From: Halichondria panicea
Lineage: Eukaryota > Porifera > Demospongiae > Suberitida > Halichondriidae
NCBI RefSeq assembly: GCF_963675165.1
Contig: NC_087377.1
Location: 3,068,978-3,132,977, forward strand
Direction: 5' to 3'
DNA: 64,000 bases
The translations under genes and the position numbers were made by a program. Shown piece by piece: positions 3,629 to 63,213 of the stretch. Under the pieces are notes generated by a model, which was not told where the DNA came from, ran no database searches, and saw only the letters and a list, made by a program, of their open reading frames with translations. Positions within the stretch are counted from its first letter, which is position 1, and each line of letters opens with the position of its first letter.

Positions 3629-3944
3629 CTTTATAGACATTGGTCTATGCAATGAAAGGTGGCACTAGAGTCAGGTTAGTTATAGTCTACATGTTCACTC
3701 ACTCTGAGGCTGAGTCTTGTCTTGCCATTGAAGGTTTGTTCAAACACACAACAATGTGCCCCTTACAAAAAAAGCAAACTGCAACATCCTCTTCCTGTAA
3801 TTTCAAGGGGCTTTCCCAGGGACTTCCCCTACTAAAACTCTACTTTCAAGACTGCAACATGCATGAGTCCCAGGCCAGTGCATGAAGGCTGGATGAAGGT
3901 TGCCTGCAGTGTCAATAATTATGCGGAGTGTATACAAACCATAG

Positions 3945-10182: not shown

Positions 10183-12474
10183 TTATTGTTCGTCAATCGG
10201 TAGTATTACCGCGAGCTTGGTAATGGGACGAGTGTAGGTTCCATCGGCCGTCTTGATCTGAGCCACTCGCACTAAACCATCCTTGCCTGGATGAACGTTC
10301 AATACTTTAGCCAATGGCCATCGATTGCGTATGGGAGCATCTTCTTTAATGACCACAAGGTCACCAATGCGAATGTTTCTTGTTGGGTGTTGCCATTTGT
10401 AGAACTTTCCTATATGAGAAAGGTATTCTGTCGAGAATCTCTTCCAAAAATGCTGTACCAATGATTGACAACATTGCCATCGCTTCAAGAGTGAGAGTGG
10501 ACGAGGAGCTATAGATGAGACATCAGGTAGTGCCTTGAGTGGTCTATTGATGAGGAAGTGTCCCGGGGTGAGAGCCTCAATGCCGTCATCATCGTTCTGC
10601 AGGGGTGTCAGCGGTCGACTATTGAGGGTAGATTCAATCTGGTACAGGACTGTGGACATTTCCTCATACGTCATCTTGACTTCGCCTAAGATCTTGCACA
10701 GGTGGGTCTTGACACTCTTTACTGCAGCTTCCCATAAACCTCCAAAGTGTGGAGCACGTTGCGGTATGAACCGCCATTCTATATTTTGACTAGCAAGATG
10801 ACCACTGATGGTTTGGTGATTCGCTTGCGTTTCAAGGAATTTGTAGACATCTGATAGCTGCCTAGATGCGCCAACAAAGTTGGTGCCATTGTCGCTCCAA
10901 ATGAGTGTAGGTAGACCACGTCTAGCGATGAACCTTCTTAGGCAAGCGATGAACGCGTCCATTGTCAGATCGGTCACCAATTCCAAGTGAACTGCCTTTA
11001 CCGATAGTGATACAAAAACACAAATGTATGCCTTTACGATAGTTGGTTTCCGGACATAACCATACTTGATCAGCACTGGACCGGCATAGTCGATGCCTAC
11101 TTTGTCGAAAACAGATCCAGGAGTGATTCTTTCCGGTGGCAGCTGTCCCAACATCTGTGGTAGGGGCTTGGCTGAATACTTTCGACAAGTGACACATTTC
11201 CTTGTGACAGAGCGAATGACCTTGTATCCACCAATTATATGATACCGTCTGTTCAGAGAGCTGGCAAGCAGTGTTGGACCAGCGTGCAACAATCGAATAT
11301 GCTCTGTGAATATGATCACATGTGTCAGCTTGTGACTTCCATGCAGAATCAGAGGGTGCTTGGATTCATAAGACGATTGAGATAGTTGCTGTCTGCCTCC
11401 GACTCGAAGCAACTTGTTATCATCAAGGAATGGGTTTCGAGAGATGAGTGAGCTTGAGTTGGGCAGTGGATGGTTGCTGCTCAGGTTTTCAATCTCGGAT
11501 TTGAAGTGAGTCAATTGAACGAATTTGTACCAGTAATTCTCCGCTTGCTGGAGTTCAAGGGTGGTCAAACAGCTAGACAGGATCCTGTCTTTCCTTTTCC
11601 TTTTGGAATTGTACACAAGACGATTGATCCAGCAAGTGACACGTTTGAAGTGGTTAAAATTCGAGAATCGTTCCAAAGGGATTACTGGCAAGTGGTCAGA
11701 CTCTGCCACTACCAGCAATGAAATCTCCTTTTCTTCGTCAGCTGGGGTATTGGGCTTGATCATATTTTTCTTAGGCCATTCGGTGGAAGATTTCTTCAAC
11801 CAGTCAGGACCATTCCACCAGAGCTCGTAGTCTAGTAACTCAGTGGGATAGAGACCTCTAGAGGCACAGTCGGCTGGATTCTCTAGTCCACTCACATGTC
11901 TCCACTTGTCTGGCGGAATCAGGTCAAGAATTGCAGAGATTCGGTTTCCCACGTATGTTTTGAAACGCTTTGGGCTTCCATCCAGCCAATTTAGTACCAC
12001 CGTGCTATCTGTCCAGGCATGTATGCTGGAAAGGGGAATGTCAAATACCTTCTTCACATGACTCAGCAATTGAGAGAGTAAGTGTGCACCACACAATTCA
12101 AGCCGTGGAATCGACAGACGCTTGATTGGTGCCACTTTGGTTTTAGACATGACTAGTGAGATTTGATTGGAATTTGATGTGTTCGTTAGACGCAGGTACA
12201 CAACAGCAGAATATGCGGATTCTGAGGCATCGGAGAACCCGTGAAGTTGGATCGATGAGATGTGAGAGGCTACGTCAAAGTAGCAGCGAGGGATATACTT
12301 GTGGGAAAGTTCAGGTAGTTCAGATCTCCACTTGCACCATACATCCTTGATACTTGAAGGAACTGGATCATCCCATTCGAGTCCTTCTTCCCACAACTTC
12401 TGGAGTAAGATCTTCATCTTGATGGTAGCAGGAGAAAACCACCCGAGCACGTCATAATTATGTCTTAGCAACAT
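10183..12474 (-). pseudogene. Pol segment: RNase H, integrase, DUF5641
   Basis: An open frame of 763 residues covering the C-terminal part of Pol. It starts with the end of RT (DVLGWFSPATIKMKILLQKL). An RNase H-like region follows with FSDASESAYSAVVYL and the conserved RLELCGA, then WTDST. Next come an integrase zinc-binding H2C2 region ending CVTCRKYSAKPLP and an integrase core with D (GIDYAGP), D (WSDNGTNF) and E (GGLWEAAVKSV). A DUF5641 tail (GDLVVIKED) ends the protein. All catalytic acids are visible. It is cut off from the RT segment by a frameshift at about 12460-12466, where the reading frame moves after an apparent 4-bp insertion. Confidence 0.9.
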
Positions 12475-13240
12475 CAGAGGCTAGACCCCGTTTGGTTAGA
12501 GTCTCAATTGGAGGTTGATCGGCCACAGTTAGTCGAAAGTGATCTTTACTTGCATTCCACTCGATACCAAGGGTCTTCTTGTACTCGTCGTCAGTGGGAA
12601 GCAAGTGTGATGATTGACTATCCCTGAGCTCAGAAGATATACTGTCCAATACCGTTGCATCATTCGAGTCCCACTTTCTGAGAAGAAATCCTCCCTTGGT
12701 AAACAGATTGTGTAGTTGCCGCTGAAGAATAATTGCTTCCTCAGCAGAGTCAGCTCCTGAGAGGCAGTCGTCTACATAGAAAGACGTTTCAACAATTCTT
12801 GCGGCCTGGGGGTATTCTGTAGCATGGTTGAGAGCGTTCTGCTTAACGGACATGTTGGCAGCAAAGGATGAAGCAGACACACCAAACGTGACTCTTGTCA
12901 TTCTGTAGTCTGTCAAATTGTCGGTGGGTGTGCTTCGCCATACAAATCGGTGGAGGTCACGATCAGATTGTGTTAGCTCGACCGCTCTGTACATTTTGCT
13001 CACATCGGCCGTGAGAGCAATTCTATGGAAGCGAAATTGTAGTAATACATCAATCAACGGTGGATGTACAGTTGGTCCAACTAACAATGTATCATTTAGG
13101 GAGACTCCAGTACTAGATTTGGCGGATGCATCAAAAACGGCCCTAATCTTTGTAGTGGTGCTATGTTCTTTGTACACAGCATGCATTGGTAGATAGAACA
13201 CACAATTGCTTGATTTTCGACTGTCTGTGTCTGGTACCAC
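12458..13240 (-). pseudogene. Pol segment: reverse transcriptase
   Basis: A 260-residue frame with the RT fingers and palm of BEL/Pao elements: RAVFDASAKS, the motif A region LTADVSKMYRAVEL and the active-site YVDD within FYVDDCLSGADSAEEA. It is in a different frame from the protease segment upstream and the RNase H segment downstream. The upstream join lies near 13251, where one G seems to be missing. A programmed shift is unlikely because no slippery heptamer is visible there. The enzyme would copy element RNA to DNA if made intact. Confidence 0.9.
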
Positions 13241-14331
13241 TTCAGCGTGTCCAATTTCATGTATTCCTCCATGACTGTGGCAAAATCTTTGAATTGGTTC
13301 TTGGCACGGAGGGATCGTTCAAGAGAGAGGAATCTTCGCACAGCTTGCATTCTGGATTCTCCAAGGGGTTTGGAGTCAAGGTTCTTGGGGAGAGGCACAA
13401 CAAATCTACCATCTTTATTTAAAGTGTGAGTCTCATCAAAATGACGTATGACTGTACGCTCCTGAGGGGATAGATTGGATGCAGCCTTGGGGCTCTCTTC
13501 GATTTCCCAGAATTGTCTCAAAATGTAATCTCCAGAAGTGACAGTGACGTGATGGGTTGATACTTGACTGTTGAGGACTTGTAGCTTGTCCGTTTTGCCA
13601 GCAAGCACCCAGCCGAAGATGGTCTCGAATGCTACTGGCGAGTCAGCTGGTCCCTGCCGCCGGCCTTGCAATAGTGAATATGCACAGACATCGACGCCAA
13701 ACAAAATGTCGATCCTTCCAGGACATCCAAATTCCGAGTCAGAGAGCTCTAGGCCAGATAAATGATTCCATTTTGAATTGAAACCCACAGGCTGTGCAGG
13801 CATATCACAAGTGACCCTCGGGACAACAACCGCAGTGACTGGTATTCTTTCATCGGGTGAAAACGTTGGCGAGACGTGGAATGTGGAAATTGAATGCAAC
13901 GGTGAGTTGTGAGAGATTCCAGCTATTCCAGTGATTTGAAGATTCTTCGACGACTTTGGTAGCCCAAGTGACTGTACCAATCGTTGAGATACAAACGAGG
14001 TTGTTGAACCTGAATCGAGTAGACCACGAGCCTTGATTTGAGAGCCATCGGGGGCATGAATTAGTACTTGACAGGTCATCATGAGAGTCCTTGAACTTGT
14101 ACCTGTCTGCGCATTGGTCGAAACGATGCTGGCAGTGCATGAGTGTTCGTTTTCTGGAGTTTCTGGAGTTTCAGAAGGAGTTTGACCAGATACCTTGGTT
14201 TCAATGTGTAATAAGGTATGATGGGGTTTTTGGCATTGTTTACAACGATGGAGACTTGGGCAATTCCTGGCCATGTGTCCGGGCCTAAAACAGTTTAGGC
14301 ATAGATTGTTAGAGCGAACAGTTGACAACAT
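13096..14331 (-). pseudogene. Gag zinc knuckle and aspartic protease segment
   Basis: The frame contains two nucleocapsid-type Cys/His clusters (CLNCFRPGHMARNCPSLHRC). A retropepsin-like DUF1758 domain follows, with the active-site LLDSGSTTSFV and downstream CPGRIDILFGVD. It shares its frame with the gag segment 14548-15708 but is separated from it by a TAG at 14548-14550; the 216 bases between the TAG and the first Met are open. The frame breaks again near 13251 before RT. Confidence 0.9.
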
Positions 14332-14547
14332 CTTGTCGTGGGGTAAGCTCTTGAACTTCGGGCAGGCATACAGTGGGTGCTTCTCGACTTTACAAGTGAC
14401 GCAGTTTCCGGCTGATTCAAAAACGTTTCCAGTGTGAGCTGAAATCTTGTGAGGATTGGTGTAGGGTTTCTTGTGCTCAAATCGTCCGCTACGCCTTTCT
14501 TGAGTAAGCGAACACGTCTCTGAGGCTTGTGCTCTAAGATCGAGAAA

Positions 14548-15708
14548 CTAAAGTAGTTTTTGATAGTGTGGAACACTGGTAGAGTCCTGACTGGCCCTTT
14601 GCCATTCAAACATCGTGGCTTGGTCCAGTTTCAGTTCCAGTATAGAAGTTATAAATGCTCCAGAAGGTTCTTCACCCATTGCCTTGAGAGCACGCAAGTG
14701 CTGTTGTACAGAGTCATGCAGGCGTCTGATCTCTTTGCCACTGCCATCCTTTAGGTTTGGAGCTTCGTAGATTTTCCGAGCATGAGCTTGGTGAATTAAG
14801 CGTGGCCTGTCGTATCGTGCCTTGAGAGATTCAATAGCCTCCGCGTATTGATCACCAGATTGAGAGAGTCCTTCAATCACTGATTTGGCTTGGCCGTCCT
14901 TCAGAGAGTGTCGGAGATAAGCCAACTTTTCCGCATTAGCAACATTCTTGCGACTGTGGACAGAAATGTTAAACTGCTCCCAGAAAGTTTGCCAATTGAG
15001 CAGGTCGCCGTCGAACGAAGCAATGTCAATTCTTGGGAGTCTAACTCCATGCGGTTCAGGTGTCGTGGTGGTGAGCGATTCCAAAGTGTATCCAGGATTG
15101 TAAAGGATTTTTTTGATCTTTACTGATAGATTGAAAATGTCCTTGTCTTGATTACAAACAGCCGTGCTGAGATCATCAGATGAATCGGCGGCAATGACTA
15201 CTGCTTCCTTCCTGATGTCTGCGAGTTCTACCTTGAGGTCTGCAAGTATTTCTTGGTAGGTGTGGGCTAAGTGAACTTCTGCAGGATCTCCAGAGAGTGT
15301 CTTTGCTTCTTCTGTGACTGACAAGAGTCTCGCTTGCAACTGCGCCAGACGGCGACCAATGAGAGTACGATCAGGGAGAGGTCTAGCCTCGACAGTATCA
15401 GTGTCAGTGTTAAGAGTAGTTAGGGCTTGTAGTCTGAGTGAGATATTCATGACATCGTCGTCATGTTTATCAAGTGTTTCTTGTTCAGCTTTGACTTGGC
15501 TTTCTTCTATAACGTCAAGAATTGCCATGTTATGCGTCTTGAAGCTAGTATCAAGTGATTCCAATCTCTTAAGTAACTGTTGCGCTTGGCTTGAGACAGA
15601 TTGATCAAAGTCCATGCCTTCGAGCTCTGTTAGCTTGGAAGTCAACCTTGTGATGCTGGCCTTTACTGAGCCTCTCCTTCTTTTGAGAGTAGTGAGCTCA
15701 GACATCAT
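14548..15708 (-). pseudogene. Gag N-terminal segment (DUF1759)
   Basis: A 386-residue frame with an N-terminal coiled coil (LKRRRGSVKASITRLTSKL) followed by the DUF1759 capsid-like region, with LPRIDIASFDGDLLNWQTFW and IEGLSQSGDQY. The start is the tandem ATG pair at 15703-15708, about 290 bp below the primer site. It ends at TAG (14548-14550) inside a conserved stretch, and the same frame continues open into the zinc-knuckle segment, so the stop looks like a point nonsense mutation. Readthrough cannot be excluded from sequence. Confidence 0.9.
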
Positions 15709-15767
15709 AAGAGATAAGAATGAAGTATACTAAATGTTTTGGTTTCGTTCGTGCAGGGCAACAATTT

Positions 15768-23101: not shown

Positions 23102-23627
23102 TGTGTGTGTTTGGAAAGGGGATAGTAAGCAAAAGGTTAACTGCATGGGTTGGATGGAACCTCGCCCGCTGAAGCATAAAATTGACTCAAACGTTATGCA
23201 CATTTGATTTTAATGAAGGACATTCAATTGACATTTTAATTACAATTATAGTTTTTCCGGTTGGTACTGGATGTAAAAACCACGAAATAAGCTGTGACAG
23301 CATTTTATTATTCTATAGTATCTATAGTGTCCAACATAGTAGTGACCAATAGTGTACAATAGTGTCTTTTAGTGTCCTTTTAGTATCTAGAATAATGTCA
23401 ATAGTTGTTCAGTAGTGTCCGTGGTGTCTATGGTGTCCTACAGCTTCTCAGTTAGGCGTTTTGTGGCTTGTAGCTACGTACTATTAGTGTAAGATCTAAG
23501 GACAATTCAGTAATAATTATATGCCAGTTGTGTGTGCGTGTGAGTGTGAAAATTAATGTATAAGTGCATCAGTACTATACACGTACTACGATGTAATATA
23601 TAAGAAGTAGAATAATTATGAGCTTAC

Positions 23628-24873
23628 CACAGACAGAATTTGGTGTCTTCTTCATCCATTTCCAACAATCTCCCTATTTCCAGGCAGTCTTCCATCGACA
23701 CGATTGAGTACTCCATCCGCAGTAGTGTGCCCAGTAGAAGCCATTTCGGTTTGATGGGCAGAGATGCATCCTTGAAGTAACGGGCGAAAACATCGCTCAA
23801 GAAATCACGAATCGGGGCAATGTCAGACTGTTCAGTTCCAGCAAAATTGTCCACGGCAAAAAATGAAGATTCAGAATCAGACGGAGGGGATACAAGGATC
23901 TCGGAAAACTTTTGAGTGGTTGGTTTCAGAGCATGGTTGACTTGCTTGATTTTCTCTTTCGGATTCTCCAACTTGTCCACGTGAGTACCGATTAAAGCTG
24001 CTACCGGACGAACTTGTTGGAAATTTTCAAACTTCTCGTTCAATTTGAAGATGGTTTTGTACTTGGTATCTTCTCGAGAGATGTGATGGATACTGGCAAC
24101 TGCTGAGAGGATTTGAGAGACTGTGGTTTCCACTGTGTGAACAGCTTTGAATGGAGTAATGACTGTGTTGTCACGACTGAAGGGAATATCGTAGGGCTTG
24201 TCAAGTTCCTTGCTCAGATCCAAGAACACTAGATACATGGCAGGACCATTGCATAGGGCTGGTAGCATTTCTAGGAAGGCAGGTTGTCCTCCAACATCAT
24301 TGATGTTTAGCAAGGTATTGCCAAGACATTTGGCCATTTCGAAGAAGTTTCCGCTCTTTATCAGCTTTTGCAGTCGAGCCTTGATCGGTATGCGCCTGTT
24401 CTGTTGGTAAGCATCCTCTCGTCTTTCAGTGCGTGTTTCTTTTTGAGGCTTTGACCGAGGCTTTTCCAGAGAAGGTGGCTTGGGTATGCTTGTGTGCTTT
24501 TCGCTTTCGGGGACAGTTTTTGTCTTTTCCTGGCTTGTGGCACTTGGGACTTCATCGACCTTGCTACTGTACATGTAGCCAAAGAGGATCTTTGCTTCCT
24601 CTTCTACGTCTTTGGAACAAACCCAATCTGTGACATCTTTGTTCATGTAGGTGACCACTTGATGGCAATTGGCGAGTAGCGTACTGCGTAGCTTTGCCTT
24701 GTCTCCAGCAGAACTGATGTTTTCGATATCTTTCAGCAAACGACTAAGAGTTGTTGTTTTTCCCACGGATGGTGGCCCGACAAGAAAGAGGCGGAGGTAC
24801 TGCATGGAGATAGTCTCTTTGTCAGTCATCAGATCGTCCAATTTCTTCAGATATCGCTTTTGCTCTCCAATCA
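23628..24873 (-). CDS. Roc GTPase exon of third ROCO module
   Basis: Acceptor AATTATGCAG, donor GTAAGC, phase 1 in and 2 out. GTPase motifs are intact: P-loop GPPSVGKTT, G3 DVGGQPAFLEMLPAL, G4 GTHVDK. A Lys/Glu/Pro-rich insertion of about 70 residues (SQEKTKTVPESEKHTSIPKP region) sits between G1 and G3. The end, PKWLLLGTLLRMEYSIVSM, is the Roc-to-COR junction. A Roc domain of the LRRK/ROCO class, predicted to bind and hydrolyse GTP. The exon is in phase with the small exon at 28451-28621 upstream. Confidence 0.88.
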
Positions 24874-24929
24874 CTGCATAATTATAAGAAAGAGAAATAA
24901 TTATTAAAATGTACACTCAACGTTATATA

Positions 24930-34244: not shown

Positions 34245-34291
34245 CTATAATTATACAAACATAAAATTAATATCATAAATTTGTAACTTAC

Positions 34292-36361
34292 CATTACGTA
34301 AAACATCATTGATAAACCAAATGTCTTGAACAGAAAGAAGTGCAAGTATTTCATTTGTAGCAGAACATTTCCAGTGACCCTCTGTGCTAGGAACGATCAT
34401 GTGTGTGTAGTTAACCTGACCACATGTACAGTGAAACCCCACAACAGGAAAAGCTTGGCCAGAAATGTGAAATGCTTCCGCGGCTTTGTTGAAACCATTA
34501 ACAATTGCTGCTCTGATAGATGGTAGAATTTCATGATCTTGCATTGAAGTGACATAAACAGTCATTTCAGCATCTTCCTGTCTATACAAAGTAATTAGAA
34601 CATTCAGTCCGGGTAAAATGAACTGCACACAGTTTTTGAAAACTCGAAATTGAGGAGCCTTAATTTTCCATGGCCATGGGTGACGATTGCACTGTGAGCA
34701 CAAGTAGCACATTATGTACTCAAACATGCCACGGGATAATGAATACTGGATCACAAGTGGAGCAACTTTGGTGTCTTTTGCACTGAAAATAGAGCTGAGA
34801 GTTTCAACACTGACTTCTTCCCTCAGTAAGCATGGCATCAAGAATAACGAAGTAGTTTCCAACTCAGTTAATATATGTAAATCTCTGAAGAGGGAAATAG
34901 CTTCTTTACATGTGAACAATCCTCCAGCATACATTTGTTCACAAGCTTCAAATGCAGTGAGGGGAATAATAGCTCCTTGATTATGTTGCATGGCATAAAG
35001 ATTTATCTGTGCAATCAATTCGATCAATACGGTCGAATCTTTAAATATCACATTTGGAAGGACATTGCCATAATAAAGAATCAAGCCACTCATGTGCAAG
35101 TTAAGTAAAGCAATTTCAAGATCAGTAATAGATAGTTTGAAATTGGTGGCAATAATCAATACTTCTTGTTTGCTAATAAATGACCGATTGTATTGTTGCA
35201 TAACTTTCTTGATAGCGTGACCAAGCATATGCCAGGATAGAGAGACCTGCTTCAGTTCAATCAAAGCCAACGATGATACTAGATGCTGCTCAATGTTTTC
35301 TATCTCTCTCCATGCTTTTCCGACTTCAAATATTGCTTGTTTTCCATCCTCACCTGTAATGAACTTTGCCTGTCCATTGTCCCTAAAAAGAATCTCACTC
35401 ATTCTCTCATTAGTTTCAATCGACTTAACTTCTGCGTGCTTTCCAACAACTAGCAATTTTGTTGCTAGTACACTGATGTCTTTTATTAGTTGCTTGCTAG
35501 TGAGAGATACTTGTCTAGAAACTGACATTTCCTGAAGGAATATTTCTTGTTCAAGATGTTGGCTCATACTAATAGAGTTAATGCCTATGGCAATCCCTTG
35601 AAGGAAAATTGGTAGTACATCTAACAACCAAACATCAGAGCAGCATACGCAATTAATAATAGTCAAATTATCGAAATCTGTTGTAAGCGATCGATCACGA
35701 TTGACCATTAGTTGCAAAATTTTCTCAGAAGAGACACATTGTAAGAGACTTTTCATAGGTATTGGCTCATAGATTAGAATATGATGCTGTGGGGAATTTC
35801 CAACATGTATCGGTCTTGATACTTCTTTACCAACAGATTGAATAGGGTTTTCTTCAGGATTTTCACTTGATGCTTCTTCGGGTCTTTGTTGTATAGAATG
35901 TTCATCTAACTCGTCCTTTTCAGCTTGAGCAAGCACCATTTCCAAATCATTTGATGCTTTGGGTCCTTGTTGCATAACATTTTTATCTGACTCATCATTT
36001 TCAGCTCCTTTTGGAGTCTGAACAAGCACTGTATCCACATTGCTTGATGCTTCTTTGGATGACCTGTCATTTTTAGCTCTCTTTGGAGTCTGTACTGCAG
36101 CATTACAAGCAAATAACATATCCAAATCGTCATCTTGTAGAGTTTTAAAACGTTCACCACTGACAGTGTAGCAACTAAATTGAAAGTTAGCTGGTCCAGG
36201 TTGAATGGAATCCAATGAAAGTGTTGGCGTAAACTTTTTATCCATGATCATTTGTTTGCAAGCATAGACATCTGATTCTGGCAGTCCAGTAAAAAGGATT
36301 GTTGTGAACCGCACACCAAATTTGCTTCCTTGCATTGCAGCTCCAAATCTAGCCTCAGCAT
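34292..36361 (-). CDS. Pseudo-Roc-COR exon (second ROCO module)
   Basis: A 690-codon exon, acceptor CCTATTGCAG, donor GTAAGT, phase 1-1. The P-loop position reads ILFTGLPESDVYACKQMIM, lacking GK[S/T], and the G3 region reads CCSDVWLLDVLPIFLQG instead of D-x-GGQPAFLE.LP. A charged, partly repeated stretch (VQTPK.., NDESDKN..) fills the place between. COR is well kept: LALIELKQVSLSWHMLGHAI, LNLHMSGLILYYGNVLPNVI, QFILPGLNVL, and a Cys-x-Cys...VQDIWF ending. By its residues the GTPase should not bind nucleotide normally. Probably a structural copy of the neighbouring modules. Confidence 0.75.
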
Positions 36362-36419
36362 CTGCAATAGGAATTAGTATGGGCAGTGTAGTAATACCAA
36401 AATAATTGTACTTAGTTAC

Positions 36420-38360
36420 CTTTTAGAGTAGCTATCTTTGGATGATGTTCATCGGTCAACCATATTTTGTGGGCAGCAGTGAGCTCCATTTGTTTGCCAG
36501 TATGTTCACCACATGGTACATGGTTATCAGTTGCAAATGGCAAATATTTGAGAAAGTGGATGCTAGATGAATGTTCGGAGCAAGAACACACAAATGTTAA
36601 GCGCATCGATTTCGTATTGATAACTCTTTGCAGCTGCACATTCAGAGTGGATACAATTTGAAGACATAGGTCAAGATGGGGAATATTGTTATCATTAAGT
36701 CCATCAAAGTGAGCTCGAACACAATCAATAAACTCAGTGAATACAAGCCGAAACTGGTTATTAATTTCAAACGACACCATGTTCTTACAATTTATAAAAT
36801 CGGGTGACAGTTTCCATATTATTCTGCCTTTTTTGATTCCAGAAAGTACGGTCATTAGTCTTGGAAAAAAACCTGGTGGTATAAACTTAGAGATTGGGAC
36901 CAAAAACAGTGGTGCCACTTGTAAATCGGCTGGTAATACAGAACAGGCTGAAATTCTTGTACCAAATACATGCTGATGATTAGGTAGTGCAGAACAGGCT
37001 GAAATTCTCGTATGAAATACATGCTGATGATTAGGACAAATGGGAAGCACTTGGAGCATAGACGGAATAAAGTAGCTTTCCAGTAAAGGCATATGCATTG
37101 CTAAATGGTGTTCATCAAAGAAGTTTAGAATCCATGATAGCGGGAGACCAGTCTTACTACCCTCTAGAAGCTTTTTACCAACTTGAACATTCAGAATACC
37201 CCGTGTTTGAAGACTCTTCCATTGCTTAGGATGATCAATATACACTTGGGGATCAAGAATAGTTCCAAGAATGGAAAGTAGGTTCTTAGGCTCAACAAAA
37301 ACATATTCTTGGAGCCTTTTCTTATCGTGATACCATATGAAGATACCAAGTTCATGAAAATAACAGAGAGCTGCTCTAAGGTCTGTTTTACACTTTTTAG
37401 CTATTTCACTAGCTTTTTCAAATGTCACAATTCCTGTGCAAGACTGTTGTAAACGTGATTCTCGTTCTAGATCAATCTTGAAAGCAATCCATTTCCTAGG
37501 TATCTTTGCTTTGGCACTCTTTGTGCAAGAAACTATTTGCTCTCGCAAAGTTTTCATTCCAGGATCATCATACTTTGCTCCTGATTGTGTGTTGTCTATC
37601 TCAAACATAAAAGAGTTGGGTGTAGAAGCTAAAGGCAAGATTACCTTTTCATGAAAGTTCGTTCCTAGAGAGTTCAGATTGAGTTTTAACTGAAGGAGCA
37701 TTTGATCCAAGTCTTGCTTGTCATCTATTTTAATCTGATCTTTAAAAGTACCGATAAATGCTATTTTAGGAAAAACCGTTCCGCTAGCTAATTCGAATAC
37801 TCTCTTCTTTAATATATCTGGAAGGTTGCTGAGATGCACATCCAGTGAATTAGAGTCTAAGAAGGAAAGACATCGATACAGGTAATCAGTATATGTGTAA
37901 GGAGACTCTCTCTCTATTTCAAGTGGGCAGGTAGGTCTAATGGAAGCGTTAGAATTTTCCAACAAATCACAAAGTCGAACAACAATACCATAAATGGATC
38001 TAAATTTGGCGAAGCAAGGAAGAAGATCTTGAAACATTGGTTGCCCTCCTGTATCCCAGAGAGTTAGATAAATATTATCTGGGTTGCTCTTATAAACGCT
38101 GTCGTACTTCTTAAATACCACGGCGCTTTTCTTGGAGTCTATTGTACTTTCAAATGTTTCTTGGTATAGCAGCTCTTGCTCCATTATTATTGTGCTTTTC
38201 TCCTTATCATTAAAGGGAATGTTCTGAAGATGCTTTCTGATGGACGTCTTTCCAACTCCCGTGTGCCCAATGAGAAGCATGTGCAAATGTGGTACCTCCA
38301 AATATTCAGAATCTGCTAGTTCAAGAGTAGCTTTCATTTCCAGTCTGGTTTTCTCCAACT
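36420..38360 (-). CDS. Roc-COR exon (first ROCO module)
   Basis: A 647-codon single exon, acceptor ACGATTTAG, donor GTAACT, phase 1-1. Roc motifs: LLIGHTGVGKTSIRKHL (G1), LTLWDTGGQPMFQDLLPCF (G3), IAFIGTFKDQ (G4, with Q for the usual Asp/Asn specificity position shifted). COR follows with KKCKTDLRAALCYFHELGIF, SILGTILDPQ, and a C-terminal part ending in a Cys cluster and LTAAHKIWLTDEHH. A 17-residue unit (NHQHVF-TRISACS-LP) is tandemly duplicated at 36945-37046. A ROCO GTPase expected to be active. It joins the kinase-like exon upstream and the pseudo-Roc exon downstream. Confidence 0.88.
36945..37046 (-). repeat. 51-bp in-frame tandem duplication in COR
   Basis: Two adjacent 51-bp copies with a few differences encode NHQHVFHTRISACSALP and NHQHVFGTRISACSVLP. 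The frame is kept. It lies in the loop between COR subdomains. Confidence 0.85.
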
Positions 38361-38424
38361 CTAAATCGTATGAATAATTAGATAATTGCTGTTTACTTAT
38401 ATAATATGATTTATAATTACTTAC

Positions 38425-59754: not shown

Positions 59755-60528
59755 CTAACTAACAGTAGGTTCTCCAGGGAAGTTCTGGTACAGCTCAGTA
59801 TGCACAGGGTGGGGAGCATCATCATCTTGGAGCTGATACGAACCAGCAGCATGTGGAGAGGAAGGGTTCAAATGGTTTGATGCTGCAGTGGTAGGTGTTG
59901 GAGAGCTTCGACAAGGAACCACTGCACCAGGAGGAGGCGGTGACACTCTCTGTTGTTGATTATGCACTGAATTAGCAGGAGCTGGAACATTCGAAGCGGG
60001 CGTGCAAGATCCCTCAAATTGTCTACTGTAATCGTTTCGAGCTGGCTGCTGAATTGTAGGATGGTGTTCCAATACTCGTTGGTTTGGTGGGGAATGACTA
60101 AAGCTACGAGTAGCAGTGATTCCATATCTACTTGAGGCATGGGAAACGGTGGTATCGGAAATTCGTTGATTGAGAAGTGGCTCAACATTTCGTAAATTTC
60201 CATCGAAAGTTTGCGGATCTCGCATCTGTTTGTGAGTGCCGATATTCCGAGGGTTATTACTAGAATAGTCTCCGGACTCCACCTGCCTGAGTTGTGCTTG
60301 CTGACCGGCCTGTGGTGTAGTATAAGCTGCTGGAGATGGGAATTGTCGGATATAGTTCGCTCTAACAATGGGGGGAGTCCAGTTAGCTTCAAGACGGCCA
60401 TCTTGTTGTTGAGGGGGAGAATCTGAATTTACCGCTCTTGGATCACTTGATCTCGGATTTTGATCATAATGCGATGATTGTCGATAGTCTGATTGATGGT
60501 AGCCACTTTGATGCCTTCGCTGTGAACT
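59755..60528 (-). CDS. UBAN gene 1, exon 3 (Pro/Gln/Ser-rich tail)
   Basis: Acceptor CCACTTGCAG, phase 0, stop TAG at 59755-59757, 257 residues. The peptide is low-complexity and polar, with SSQRRHQSGYHQSDYRQSSH at its start, SDSPPQQQDGR, SPPPPGAV and NFPGEPTVS at the end. Disordered; many Tyr and Pro residues could serve as docking or phosphorylation sites. No zinc finger is seen, unlike NEMO and optineurin, which carry one at the C-terminus. With exons 1 and 2 it completes a 403-residue protein. Confidence 0.8.
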   Translation of the reverse strand, partial: SSQRRHQSGYHQSDYRQSSHYDQNPRSSDPRAVNSDSPPQQQDGRLEANWTPPIVRANYIRQFPSPAAYTTPQAGQQAQLRQVESGDYSSNNPRNIGTHKQMRDPQTFDGNLRNVEPLLNQRISDTTVSHASSRYGITATRSFSHSPPNQRVLEHHPTIQQPARNDYSRQFEGSCTPASNVPAPANSVHNQQQRVSPPPPGAVVPCRSSPTPTTAASNHLNPSSPHAAGSYQLQDDDAPHPVHTELYQNFPGEPTVS

Positions 60529-60873: not shown

Positions 60874-61182
60874 ATTTTGTATTTGCTTCATTCTGGCTAT
60901 GGCGTCTCTCAGTTTAGTCAGTTCCTTATCAGCGTTTTGTTTGCTCCAAGACAGTGCCCGCAACTCCTCCCTCAGCTGACAAATCTCTTGGTTTTTGACG
61001 GCCTCCAATTTCTTCCATTCAGCCAATTGTTGGTTGCATTGCACACACTGATTTCCTGTTGTGGCGTCCAGCATGAACTGGTCCAACTGTTGGGTCAAGT
61101 GGTTCACGTCCGTCTGGTGTCTTCCATGGGCCTCTTCTCTGTCCTTGCGTTCCCTCTCAAAATCTTGTTTGTAGACAGTAGC
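60874..61182 (-). CDS. UBAN gene 1, exon 2 (UBAN-like coiled coil)
   Basis: Acceptor GTACGTACAG, donor GTAAGG, phase 0, 103 codons. It opens with ATVYKQDFERERKDREEAH, the hallmark of the UBAN/CC2-LZ region of NEMO, optineurin and ABIN proteins (xYxxDFxxERxxRE). That motif binds linear/K63 ubiquitin chains through a parallel coiled coil. The rest is a heptad-rich coil with CVQCNQQLAEW, a CxxC pair, and LREELRALSWSKQNADKELT. The same motif opens an exon of the divergent gene (62461). Confidence 0.8.
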
Positions 61183-61428: not shown

Positions 61429-61557
61429 CTGGAGTTTAGAGACCTCCAGTTCATTCTCCAGCTGAGTCACTGTGTCCAGCACTTGGTCCTCCCATCCGTC
61501 TACCTCCTCGTGGATGAGCGCTCTCACCTGCTCTCTGAATACAGCATTCTGTGCCAT
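61429..61557 (-). CDS. UBAN gene 1, exon 1 (start)
   Basis: ATG at 61555-61557 preceded by an A/T-rich stretch; 43 codons, donor GTCAGT, phase 0. MAQNAVFREQVRALIHEEVD then a helical VLDTVTQLENELEVSKLQ, which runs as a coiled coil into the UBAN exon. The start is 231 bp from the start of the divergent gene 2. ABIN/NEMO-like proteins usually have a longer coiled N-terminus, so extra 5' exons are possible but not needed. Confidence 0.75.
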
Positions 61558-61788
61558 GTTTTTTTTATTCAAGAACAAGATTGGGTAACAAGCGCTTGCA
61601 GTCAATGTTTTATTTAGTCTGGCCCATAAGTAAGTGTATGATTTGGGGTTTTCCCGGGGAATCCCCCGTTTTATCGTGCGTAGTATGGTTTCTAATTGCT
61701 GTAAATTGCTTGTTTGCGACACAAAAATCACTTCTTTCAAGAGGTATTTGTGTGCAAACTTAGACTAGATCATCGTCTATACAAGGAC
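61558..61788. promoter_or_regulatory. Bidirectional promoter region with two kB-like sites
   Basis: The 231 bp between the divergent start codons contain GGGGTTTTCC (61645-61654) and GGGGAATCCC (61656-61665). Both fit the NF-kB consensus GGGRNWYYCC and start 11 bp apart, so they face the same side of the helix. No clear TATA box was assigned. Shared control of both UBAN genes by a Rel/NF-kB factor is a reasonable inference. Confidence 0.6.
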
Positions 61789-61941
61789 ATGGCTGAATGT
61801 CGTAATCCGGGCCAGGTGGATGGATTAGAAGACATCCTGAAAACCAAGCCGAGCGTTGAGAGGGACCAGAGAATCAGGGAACTGGTTGCTGCACTTGCCA
61901 AGGAGAGGGACACATTGAAAGACCACTTGAGTATTGTAGAG
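61789..61941 (+). CDS. UBAN gene 2, exon 1
   Basis: ATG at 61789; 51 codons, donor GTAGGT, phase 0. MAECRNPGQVDGLEDILKTK then RIRELVAALAKERDTLKDHL, an acidic helix entering a coiled coil. An in-frame ATG lies further up (61714), but the 61789 start is chosen because the upstream residues look untranslated and overlap the promoter side. Exons 2-5 follow in phase 0. Confidence 0.7.
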
Positions 61942-62249: not shown

Positions 62250-62339
62250 GACAAAGGCTTCGTGCTGGTGCTGGGAGATGATACTCTCAAACAACAAGTG
62301 GCAGACCTGAAAGAACAGCTTAGAGTGCTCCAAATTGCA
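62250..62339 (+). CDS. UBAN gene 2, exon 2
   Basis: Acceptor GTGTATGCAG, donor GTAAGC, 30 codons, phase 0. DKGFVLVLGDDTLKQQVADL then KEQLRVLQIA, a coiled coil leading into the UBAN motif. Confidence 0.7.
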
Positions 62340-62460: not shown

Positions 62461-62691
62461 GCTGACACTTACAAAGAAGATTTTCTGAGGGAGAGAAACG
62501 ACAGAGCCTCAGCTCATGGGGCAAAGGACGATTTCAAGAAAGCTATGGAAAAAACTGAAGCGGAGAATAGACAACTCAAACAGAGACTCGTAAGGAGTGA
62601 CTCGACCAATCGGTCAAACACGAATGGAGGAAACAGATCACCTGAAAACTCCACTGCTTCTGACCAGAAGTGCAGAGAACTAAGAAATCAT
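62461..62691 (+). CDS. UBAN gene 2, exon 3 (UBAN-like motif)
   Basis: Acceptor AATTATTGCAG, donor GTTAGT, 77 codons, phase 0. It opens ADTYKEDFLRERNDRASAH, parallel to gene 1 exon 2 (xYxxDFxxERxDRxxxHG), followed by a coil with AMEKTEAENRQLKQRL. A Ser/Asn-rich loop (STNRSNTNGGNRSPENST) then leads into CRELRNH. Ubiquitin-chain binding is predicted from the family. The shared exon start and phase indicate gene duplication. Confidence 0.8.
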
Positions 62692-62800: not shown

Positions 62801-62893
62801 GTCCATCAACTGGAGGAGGTGGTCCAGCAGTTACAGAGGCAGTTGGAACGAGCTCTGGCTGAATCCATTGAGCTGAATGAGCTAAAATGCCGT
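62801..62893 (+). CDS. UBAN gene 2, exon 4
   Basis: Acceptor TGCACACTCAG, donor GTAAGT, 31 codons, phase 0. VHQLEEVVQQLQRQLERALA and ESIELNELKCR: continuous heptads of a coiled coil. Confidence 0.7.
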
Positions 62894-63150: not shown

Positions 63151-63213
63151 CAAAAGCAGCAGGAAGAGTACGCTCACGCACTGGAGCAGGAGAGGGACCA
63201 ACTACGACAGCAG
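63151..63213 (+). CDS. UBAN gene 2, exon 5
   Basis: Acceptor TATATCCTCACAG, donor GTATAA, 21 codons, phase 0: QKQQEEYAHALEQERDQLRQ. Coiled coil. No stop is reached; the gene continues beyond the window edge. Confidence 0.65.

What the first reader, a model, noticed from the sequence alone, without database searches (positions are those of the whole stretch)
61429..61941. Divergent pair of UBAN-type genes sharing a 231-bp promoter with two NF-kB-like sites
Both genes open an exon with the same xYxxDFxxERxDRxxxHG motif seen in NEMO/optineurin/ABIN ubiquitin readers, and both use phase-0 introns. Between their start codons lie GGGGTTTTCC and GGGGAATCCC, spaced one helical turn apart. In vertebrates several ABIN/A20-type regulators are NF-kB targets that feed back on the pathway. 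A head-to-head pair under shared kB sites would be an ancient, compact feedback circuit.
Basis: partly seen in the sequence, partly recalled or inferred. Interest (0 to 1): 0.9.

Follow-up and report, generated by a model that had tools for sequence, protein, structure and literature searches.

The report
Sponge ubiquitin-reader gene pair, shared promoter
Two sponge genes that probably read ubiquitin signals in immunity sit back to back around a short stretch of DNA carrying two NF-kB-like sites, which suggests, but does not prove, that NF-kB switches both on together.

Summary
In detail: two head-to-head genes, start codons 231 bp apart (61558-61788), phase-0 introns, YxxDFxxERxDRxxxHG in both, and GGGGTTTTCC (61645-61654) plus GGGGAATCCC (61656-61665) between them. 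The genome is that of the demosponge Halichondria panicea. Both coils are UBAN type; the right gene also ends in a UBZ-like zinc finger. A relative appears to carry both genes on one 7,044-bp contig; its promoter was out of reach. No kB dyad arose in 4 Mb of simulated sequence, and similar elements precede an ADAR/Z-alpha gene pair and a TRAF-type gene. Against: of 19 non-repeat dyads looked at, 7 are coding; bidirectional promoters are common in a sponge; there is no Rel-binding, expression or sister-promoter evidence. 'Ancient' and 'negative feedback' are unproven. Verdict: partly supported; a new variant of a known kind.

The parts
61558..61788 (.). 231-bp intergenic region between the two start codons, putative bidirectional promoter
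61645..61654 (+). kB-like site 1, GGGGTTTTCC
61656..61666 (.). kB-like site 2, GGGGAATCCC(C), near-palindromic 11-mer of p50-homodimer type (type recalled)
61429..61557 (-). left gene exon 1 (MAQNAVFREQ...SKLQ), N-terminal coil
60874..61182 (-). left gene exon 2, UBAN coil ATVYKQDFERERKDREEAHG
59755..60528 (-). left gene exon 3, Pro/Gln-rich C-terminus with stop; 72% identical relative P0005
61789..61941 (+). right gene exon 1
62250..62339 (+). right gene exon 2
62461..62691 (+). right gene exon 3, UBAN coil ADTYKEDFLRERNDRASAHG
62801..62893 (+). right gene exon 4, coiled coil
63151..63213 (+). right gene exon 5, coiled coil; the gene continues beyond the window (64073-65290 with the zinc finger CPVCKKKFRYDETQKCRTHIRRC, and 65865-66074)

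Best explanation
A 231-bp bidirectional promoter drives two UBAN-type ubiquitin-reader genes of the sponge Halichondria panicea, and the tandem kB dyad in its middle makes both inducible by the animal's apparently single NF-kB. The products dimerise through the coil and read ubiquitin chains on activated immune signalling complexes (RIPK/TRAF type); the right-hand protein adds a second, UBZ-like reader. The pair would thus tune the pathway that induces it, more likely as a brake (ABIN/optineurin-like) than as an IKK scaffold. Shown: gene anatomy, UBAN family membership, the dyad and its excess over compositional chance, presence of NF-kB, A20-like and TRAF-type genes. Inferred: that the 231 bp is one promoter, Rel binding, inducibility, ubiquitin binding, sign of the feedback.
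For: Anatomy. UBAN: PF16516 is the best Pfam family of both (E 6.6e-7 and 4e-7); the best PDB hit of each is TNIP1 (E 0.0088 and 0.047); a profile of 18 sponge UBAN exons finds OPTN, TNIP2, NEMO and TNIP1 as 20 of 21 PDB matches (best E 3.2e-9; 16 of the 18 had themselves been picked by PF16516, so this test is not independent). Zinc finger: beta-beta-alpha model; the top 11 of 92 PDB fold matches are ubiquitin-binding UBZ fingers, though the best E is only 0.59. Dyad: 0 in 4 Mb simulated. Layout: P0003 (60% to the right gene) and P0005 (72% to the left gene's last exon) are each listed on one contig, longest 7,044 bp. Similar elements at innate-immune genes: a strict dyad in the 133-bp gap between an ADAR-type (Z-alpha, dsRBD, deaminase) gene and a Z-alpha gene, and a looser composite before a TRAF-type gene. 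ABIN-1 and ABIN-3 are induced by NF-kB-activating stimuli in mammals (passages of PMC8286839). LPS-regulated genes of H. panicea include ubiquitination, TRAF and RIPK1 genes (passages of PMC8242945).
Against: Both UBAN matches lie under the Pfam cut-off (30.1 and 30.8 against 35.3 bits), and an unrelated coiled coil (ELKS, E 0.057) scores between TNIP1 chains. Of 15 non-repeat dyads in the listed part, 4 lie in coding frames and 2 at 3' or other places; 3 of 4 further places looked at are coding too, so a dyad alone does not mean regulation. In the TRAF-type case the first half (GGGGTTGTCC) does not fit GGGRNWYYCC. The NF-kB gene's own GGGGGATTCCC lies in a coding exon. Of the 20 UBAN loci cut out (about 1.5 kb on each side), only this pair's (L048), L055 (repeat-borne) and L049 (one weak site) hold a kB match; the promoters of the others lie mostly outside what was fetched. 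Almost one third of Amphimedon genes appear to use a bidirectional promoter (PMC4773876 passages), so head-to-head order is ordinary. In H. panicea the LPS response relied mainly on down-regulation, NF-kB was constitutively expressed, and the terms NEMO, optineurin, TNIP and A20 do not occur in that paper's main text. HOIP-UBA and OTULIN profiles found nothing (inconclusive, no control rang).
Confidence: 0.45

Rival explanations
1. Ordinary bidirectional housekeeping promoter; the GC-rich dyad is bound by another factor (EBF/COE-like at the junction TTTTCCCGGGGAAT, Schnurri/HIVEP or Ikaros-type zinc fingers) and the genes are not NF-kB targets.
For: Bidirectional promoters are very common in a sponge (PMC4773876 passages). 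The junction resembles an EBF site with mismatches (EBF, HIVEP and Ikaros preferences recalled).
Against: A strict TCCCNNGGGA core is absent. Both halves fit GGGRNWYYCC independently, and in the L061 dyads the two sites start 16-22 bp apart, which one EBF site would not explain.
Confidence: 0.3
2. The dyad is a coincidence or the relic of a dispersed repeat, without regulatory function.
For: Three dispersed repeat families carry kB-like pairs, and 7 of 19 non-repeat dyads looked at are coding.
Against: This exact 21-mer occurs once among the 8 matches of the looser composite pattern (8 against 2 reversed); it is non-coding, between two starts, with 0 dyads in 4 Mb simulated and 5 reversed-pattern matches in 131 Mb.
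Confidence: 0.15
3. The genes are NF-kB-responsive but work as selective-autophagy receptors or IKK scaffolds (optineurin or NEMO role), not as brakes. This overlaps with the best explanation as to the promoter and differs as to the products.
For: The 18-sequence profile scores OPTN and NEMO above TNIP1; the zinc finger resembles NDP52/TAX1BP1 UBZ fingers.
Against: Single-sequence searches put TNIP1 first; no NEMO N-terminal Pfam domain appears in the right protein at E<=1.
Confidence: 0.25

Closest known systems
ABIN-1/-2/-3 (TNIP1-3)
   Same: UBAN (AHD2) coil; ABIN-1 and -3 are induced by NF-kB-activating stimuli (PMC8286839 passages); TNIP1 is the best PDB hit of both; Pro-rich C-terminus (of ABIN-1 recalled)
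   Different: AHD1 was not tested; the two genes are paired head to head and belong to a local expansion
Optineurin and NEMO (UBAN + C-terminal zinc finger)
   Same: UBAN coil followed by a C-terminal Cys-Cys-His-Cys finger in the right gene (that of OPTN/NEMO recalled); the profile hits OPTN and NEMO
   Different: A long Pro-rich region between the two and further residues after the finger; no NEMO-specific N-terminal Pfam domain; the left gene shows no finger
TAX1BP1/NDP52-type UBZ zinc fingers
   Same: Beta-beta-alpha finger, top fold matches
   Different: No significant E-value; other domains of those proteins were not looked for
Bidirectional promoters of Amphimedon queenslandica (PMC4773876)
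   Same: Short shared intergenic region, common in that sponge (passages)
   Different: The passages seen describe GC-box, E-box, Nrf-1 and other motifs; the term NF-kappaB does not occur in the main text

Membership tests
UBAN family (NEMO/OPTN/ABIN) | Core YxxDFxxERxxR of the coil | tested here: met
   Y, D, F, E, R, R invariant in 18 of 18 aligned sponge exons including both genes
UBAN family (NEMO/OPTN/ABIN) | Profile similarity to solved UBAN coils | tested here: met
   20 of 21 PDB matches at E<=10 are OPTN, TNIP2, NEMO or TNIP1; best E 3.2e-9; partly circular, since 16 of 18 profile members were found with PF16516
UBAN family (NEMO/OPTN/ABIN) | Pfam CC2-LZ score over the curated cut-off | tested here: inconclusive
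   Best family for both, E 6.6e-7 and 4e-7, but 30.1 and 30.8 bits against 35.3; none of the 38 genome matches is over it either
UBAN family (NEMO/OPTN/ABIN) | Binding of Met1/Lys63 ubiquitin chains as a parallel dimer | not testable with these tools
   Needs recombinant protein
ABIN subfamily | AHD1 (A20-binding) and further AHDs | not tested
   No profile for AHD1 was used; A20-like genes exist in the genome
NEMO | N-terminal IKK-binding domain | tested here: not met
   No such Pfam family in the right protein at E<=1
NF-kB target gene | Consensus kB sites in the promoter above chance | tested here: met
NF-kB target gene | Sites conserved in sister species | not testable with these tools
   Sister contig known only through its proteins; scans for relatives of P0003 found none
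NF-kB target gene | Rel binding and induction | not testable with these tools
   Needs EMSA, ChIP or RNA data
Bidirectional gene pair | Head-to-head starts less than 1 kb apart | tested here: met
   231 bp between ATGs
Bidirectional gene pair | Arrangement conserved in a relative | tested here: inconclusive
   P0003 and P0005 are each listed on one contig of 7,044 bp; the contig itself and the orientation were not seen

The most novel reading that the evidence does not exclude
Sponges have amplified UBAN ubiquitin readers (here 25 UBAN-like exons at E<=0.01, some in genes with a UBZ-like finger) into an immune adaptor repertoire, and use compact head-to-head promoters with tandem kB dyads as a general switch for innate-immune gene pairs (UBAN/UBAN, ADAR-Z-alpha/Z-alpha) and single genes (TRAF type).
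Probability: 0.25. Interest if true: 0.75.

Novelty: new variant of a known kind. Interest (0 to 1): 0.52.

Why it matters
In the passages read I saw no sponge NF-kB target gene defined at promoter level. A 231-bp element with two consensus kB sites and a readout in both directions is a direct, cheap test of whether NF-kB controlled ubiquitin-reader regulators in an early-branching animal. The UBAN expansion adds a second question: why a sponge has so many ubiquitin readers when mammals have about five UBAN genes (number recalled).

Tried and rejected
NF-kB autoregulation: GGGGGATTCCC near the RHD gene looked promising but lies in an RHD coding exon. Genome-wide dyad excess as proof of regulation: rejected as proof, because repeats and coding frames, several of them GKSP/GESP-like repeats, make up a good part of what was looked at. 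Sister-species promoter DNA: scans of genome contigs and viral contigs with P0003 found no relative. Linear-ubiquitin writer and eraser (HOIP-UBA, OTULIN profiles): nothing, inconclusive. kB sites at A20-like genes: one single GGGACTTTCC about 1.36 kb upstream of the inferred start of the C16 gene, none upstream of the C7 gene in the 6 kb read: too weak to use. Right-protein search of the genome: not completed. Scripts: one search failed (file name) and one search failed (syntax), both rerun; one search timed out and was replaced with a Markov model in place of shuffles. Literature: no paper holds both UBAN and Amphimedon; the listings for Porifera/optineurin (4 papers), Amphimedon queenslandica/TNFAIP3 (3) and Halichondria panicea/genome/immune (15 of 73 listed) showed no report of this pair in titles or abstract starts; most subscription papers are not covered.

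Full report
WHERE IT IS. The window is G000:C1:3068978-3132977 of a 131-Mb genome in 39 contigs. A protein named for Halichondria panicea is listed on a contig of 18,138,809 bp, exactly the length of C1, so the genome is taken to be that demosponge (taxonomy).

THE OBSERVATION. Reading the DNA and splicing by script bear out the stated details: start codons at 61557 (-) and 61789 (+), 231 bp between them, phase-0 GT-AG introns throughout, both UBAN exons starting at the same residue before Y-x-x-D-F, and the two kB-like sites 11 bp apart at 61645-61654 and 61656-61665. The left protein has 403 aa, the right 685 aa; the right gene runs 2,074 bp past the window end. The two proteins align convincingly only over the UBAN stretch (18 of 41 identical, E 2e-7), so they look like old relatives rather than a recent inverted duplication.

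IS IT MORE THAN CHANCE. In 4 Mb of first-order Markov sequence with the window's composition there were 111 GGGRNWYYCC clusters and no dyad. The window holds 7 kB clusters: two dyads, at 3807/3819 and here, and three single sites. Genome-wide counts (both strands, palindromes counted twice) are 399 against 5 for the reversed pattern at spacer 0-12, 135 against 3 at spacer 3-11, 216 against 51 at spacer 13-30, 3 against 1 for a permuted motif, and 8 against 2 for a looser composite like ours. These excesses overstate function, since three dispersed repeat families dominate the rows. After setting aside those families and their variants (among them C2:1749031 and C3:3166260), 15 distinct dyads remain in the 100 rows listed (C1 to C3:6.74 Mb; two identical copies at C1:4930060 and C1:4964846 count as one, and only the first was fetched). 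All 15 were looked at, by eye from open reading frames, without annotation: 4 are in coding frames (L032, L063, L065, L069), 2 at 3' or other places (L067, L071), and 9 at places that could be 5' flanks. Only in two of the 9, this one and the first of L061, did I place start codons on both sides. Of 4 more that I chose, not at random, are coding (L074, L075, L077) and 1 is upstream of a gene (L076).

WHAT THE GENES ARE. PF16516 ('CC2-LZ', UBAN) is the best Pfam family for both, below its cut-off. Single-sequence PDB searches put TNIP1 first for both with weak E-values: for the right protein 4 TNIP1 sequences and 1 OPTN among 17 matches, for the left 4 TNIP1 and 1 NEMO among 7, the rest being other coiled coils and unrelated chains. 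An alignment of 18 sponge UBAN exons, with Y, D, F, E, R, R invariant, retrieves OPTN, TNIP2, NEMO and TNIP1 as 20 of 21 PDB matches; 16 of the 18 were themselves found with PF16516, so this adds precision rather than independence. Three near-duplicate or truncated copies (L047, L053, L054) were left out of that alignment; they show the same motif. The right gene has A where TNIP1 and OPTN have E after the last R of the motif; the left gene keeps E. The right gene's C-terminal CPVCKKKFRYDETQKCRTHIRRC is modelled as beta-beta-alpha (mean pLDDT 78.6 for the best of five models, the others 54-63; single sequence). The top 11 of its 92 PDB fold matches are UBZ fingers of NDP52, TAX1BP1, WRNIP1 and RAD18, none with E under 0.59; by sequence, Pfam and PDB give only weak hits to UBZ and ordinary C2H2 fingers. 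A like finger (48% over 44 residues) ends an exon just downstream of a UBAN exon of the 4.9-Mb cluster (L071), presumably the same gene.

THE FAMILY. A genome search with PF16516 gives 38 matches at E<=10, of which 25 at E<=0.01: 16 at C1:4.85-5.19 Mb, 5 at C1:3.13-3.22 Mb (both genes and the tandem copy among them), 3 elsewhere on C1, 1 on C10. None is over the Pfam cut-off, and E. coli and Synechococcus also ring weakly in that search, so the weakest rows need care; the 21 that I read (20 loci and the left gene) all hold YxxDFxxERxxR. The left protein as query finds its own 3 exons and 6 weak UBAN matches (best E 5.6e-4); the same search with the right protein did not complete. The right gene's exons 3-7 are repeated downstream at 69414-72755 in extended window coordinates, open throughout, 96.6% identical over 2,903 bp with introns plus a further block of 212 bp at 86.3%, dN/dS 0.42 over 603 codons; no exon 1-2 of that copy was seen in the DNA read. 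An exon of another subfamily (L055) finds 26 proteins, one named for H. panicea and 25 without a source's name.

CONSERVATION. The right gene's big exon finds P0002 and P0003 (63% and 60%), the left gene's last exon finds P0005 (72%), besides near-identical P0001 and P0004. P0003 and P0005 are each listed with one contig, longest 7,044 bp, so the two genes most likely lie together in the relative as they do here. I could not read that contig; orientation and promoter are unknown.

PATHWAY CONTEXT. One RHD gene is found, at C6:6.22 Mb (3 exon matches). Two genes combine an OTU protease domain with A20-type fingers. The composite most like ours, GGGGTTGTCCCGGGGAATTCC, ends 110 bp before the inferred start codon of a gene with RING (best E 8.4e-5, under the cut-off) and zf-TRAF (E 1e-7, over it) domains; its first half does not fit the strict kB pattern. 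A strict dyad lies in the 133-bp gap between an ADAR-type gene (two Z-alpha exons, dsRBD, deaminase; taken as one gene from strand and order) and a Z-alpha gene, the same layout as here. The dyad at window 3807 lies about 160 bp upstream of a WW-like exon.

MECHANISM. Best reading: NF-kB binds the dyad, probably as p50-type dimers given GGGGAATCCCC (preference recalled), and raises both genes; the products read ubiquitin chains on receptor complexes and tune IKK/NF-kB output. Steps after the DNA anatomy are inference. The sign of the loop is open, and the one H. panicea LPS study seen in passages reports mainly down-regulation and constitutive NF-kB expression. The word 'ancient' is not earned: the evidence reaches only to a relative 60-72% identical in the compared exons.

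LITERATURE. Read as passages only: PMC13042239, PMC8286839, PMC8242945, PMC8677719, PMC4773876, PMC5082814. None of the passages describes this pair.

CHECK.

Noticed in passing
G000:C1:4.85-5.19 Mb, 3.13-3.22 Mb and others: Large expansion of UBAN-coil genes in Halichondria panicea, at least one with a like C-terminal zinc finger (L071).
   Followed up: partly
69414-72755 in extended window coordinates (L010:5414-8755): Tandem copy of the right gene's UBAN-to-zinc-finger exons without exons 1-2; frames intact; could be an alternative 3' cassette.
   Followed up: partly
L061 (G000:C3:2208500-2218499): ADAR-type gene (Z-alpha, dsRBD, deaminase) head to head with a Z-alpha gene, 133 bp apart, kB dyad between; a second, degenerate copy of the layout about 5 kb on with another dyad.
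   Followed up: partly
L076:1257-1277 (G000:C4:6232756): kB composite much like the window's upstream of a TRAF-type gene; its first half is off the strict consensus.
   Followed up: partly
Dispersed, (for example C1:3368569, C1:96867, C1:72389): Three dispersed repeat families carry kB-like pairs and may spread such sites.
   Followed up: no
window 3807-3828: Second kB dyad of the window, about 160 bp upstream of a WW-like exon of a minus-strand gene that may also hold a death-like domain (Pfam Death E 0.0086, under cut-off).
   Followed up: partly
window 10186-15729 (-): Long minus-strand ORFs (765, 286, 483, 393 aa) that look retrotransposon-like (impression, not tested).
   Followed up: no
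window 23627-24916 and 34254-38424 (-): Long ORFs with P-loop-like motifs (GPPSVGKTT, GHTGVGKT), perhaps Roc/GTPase-type immune genes (impression, not tested).
   Followed up: no
L072 and L073 (C7, C16): Two A20-like genes (OTU plus A20 fingers) in the sponge genome.
   Followed up: partly
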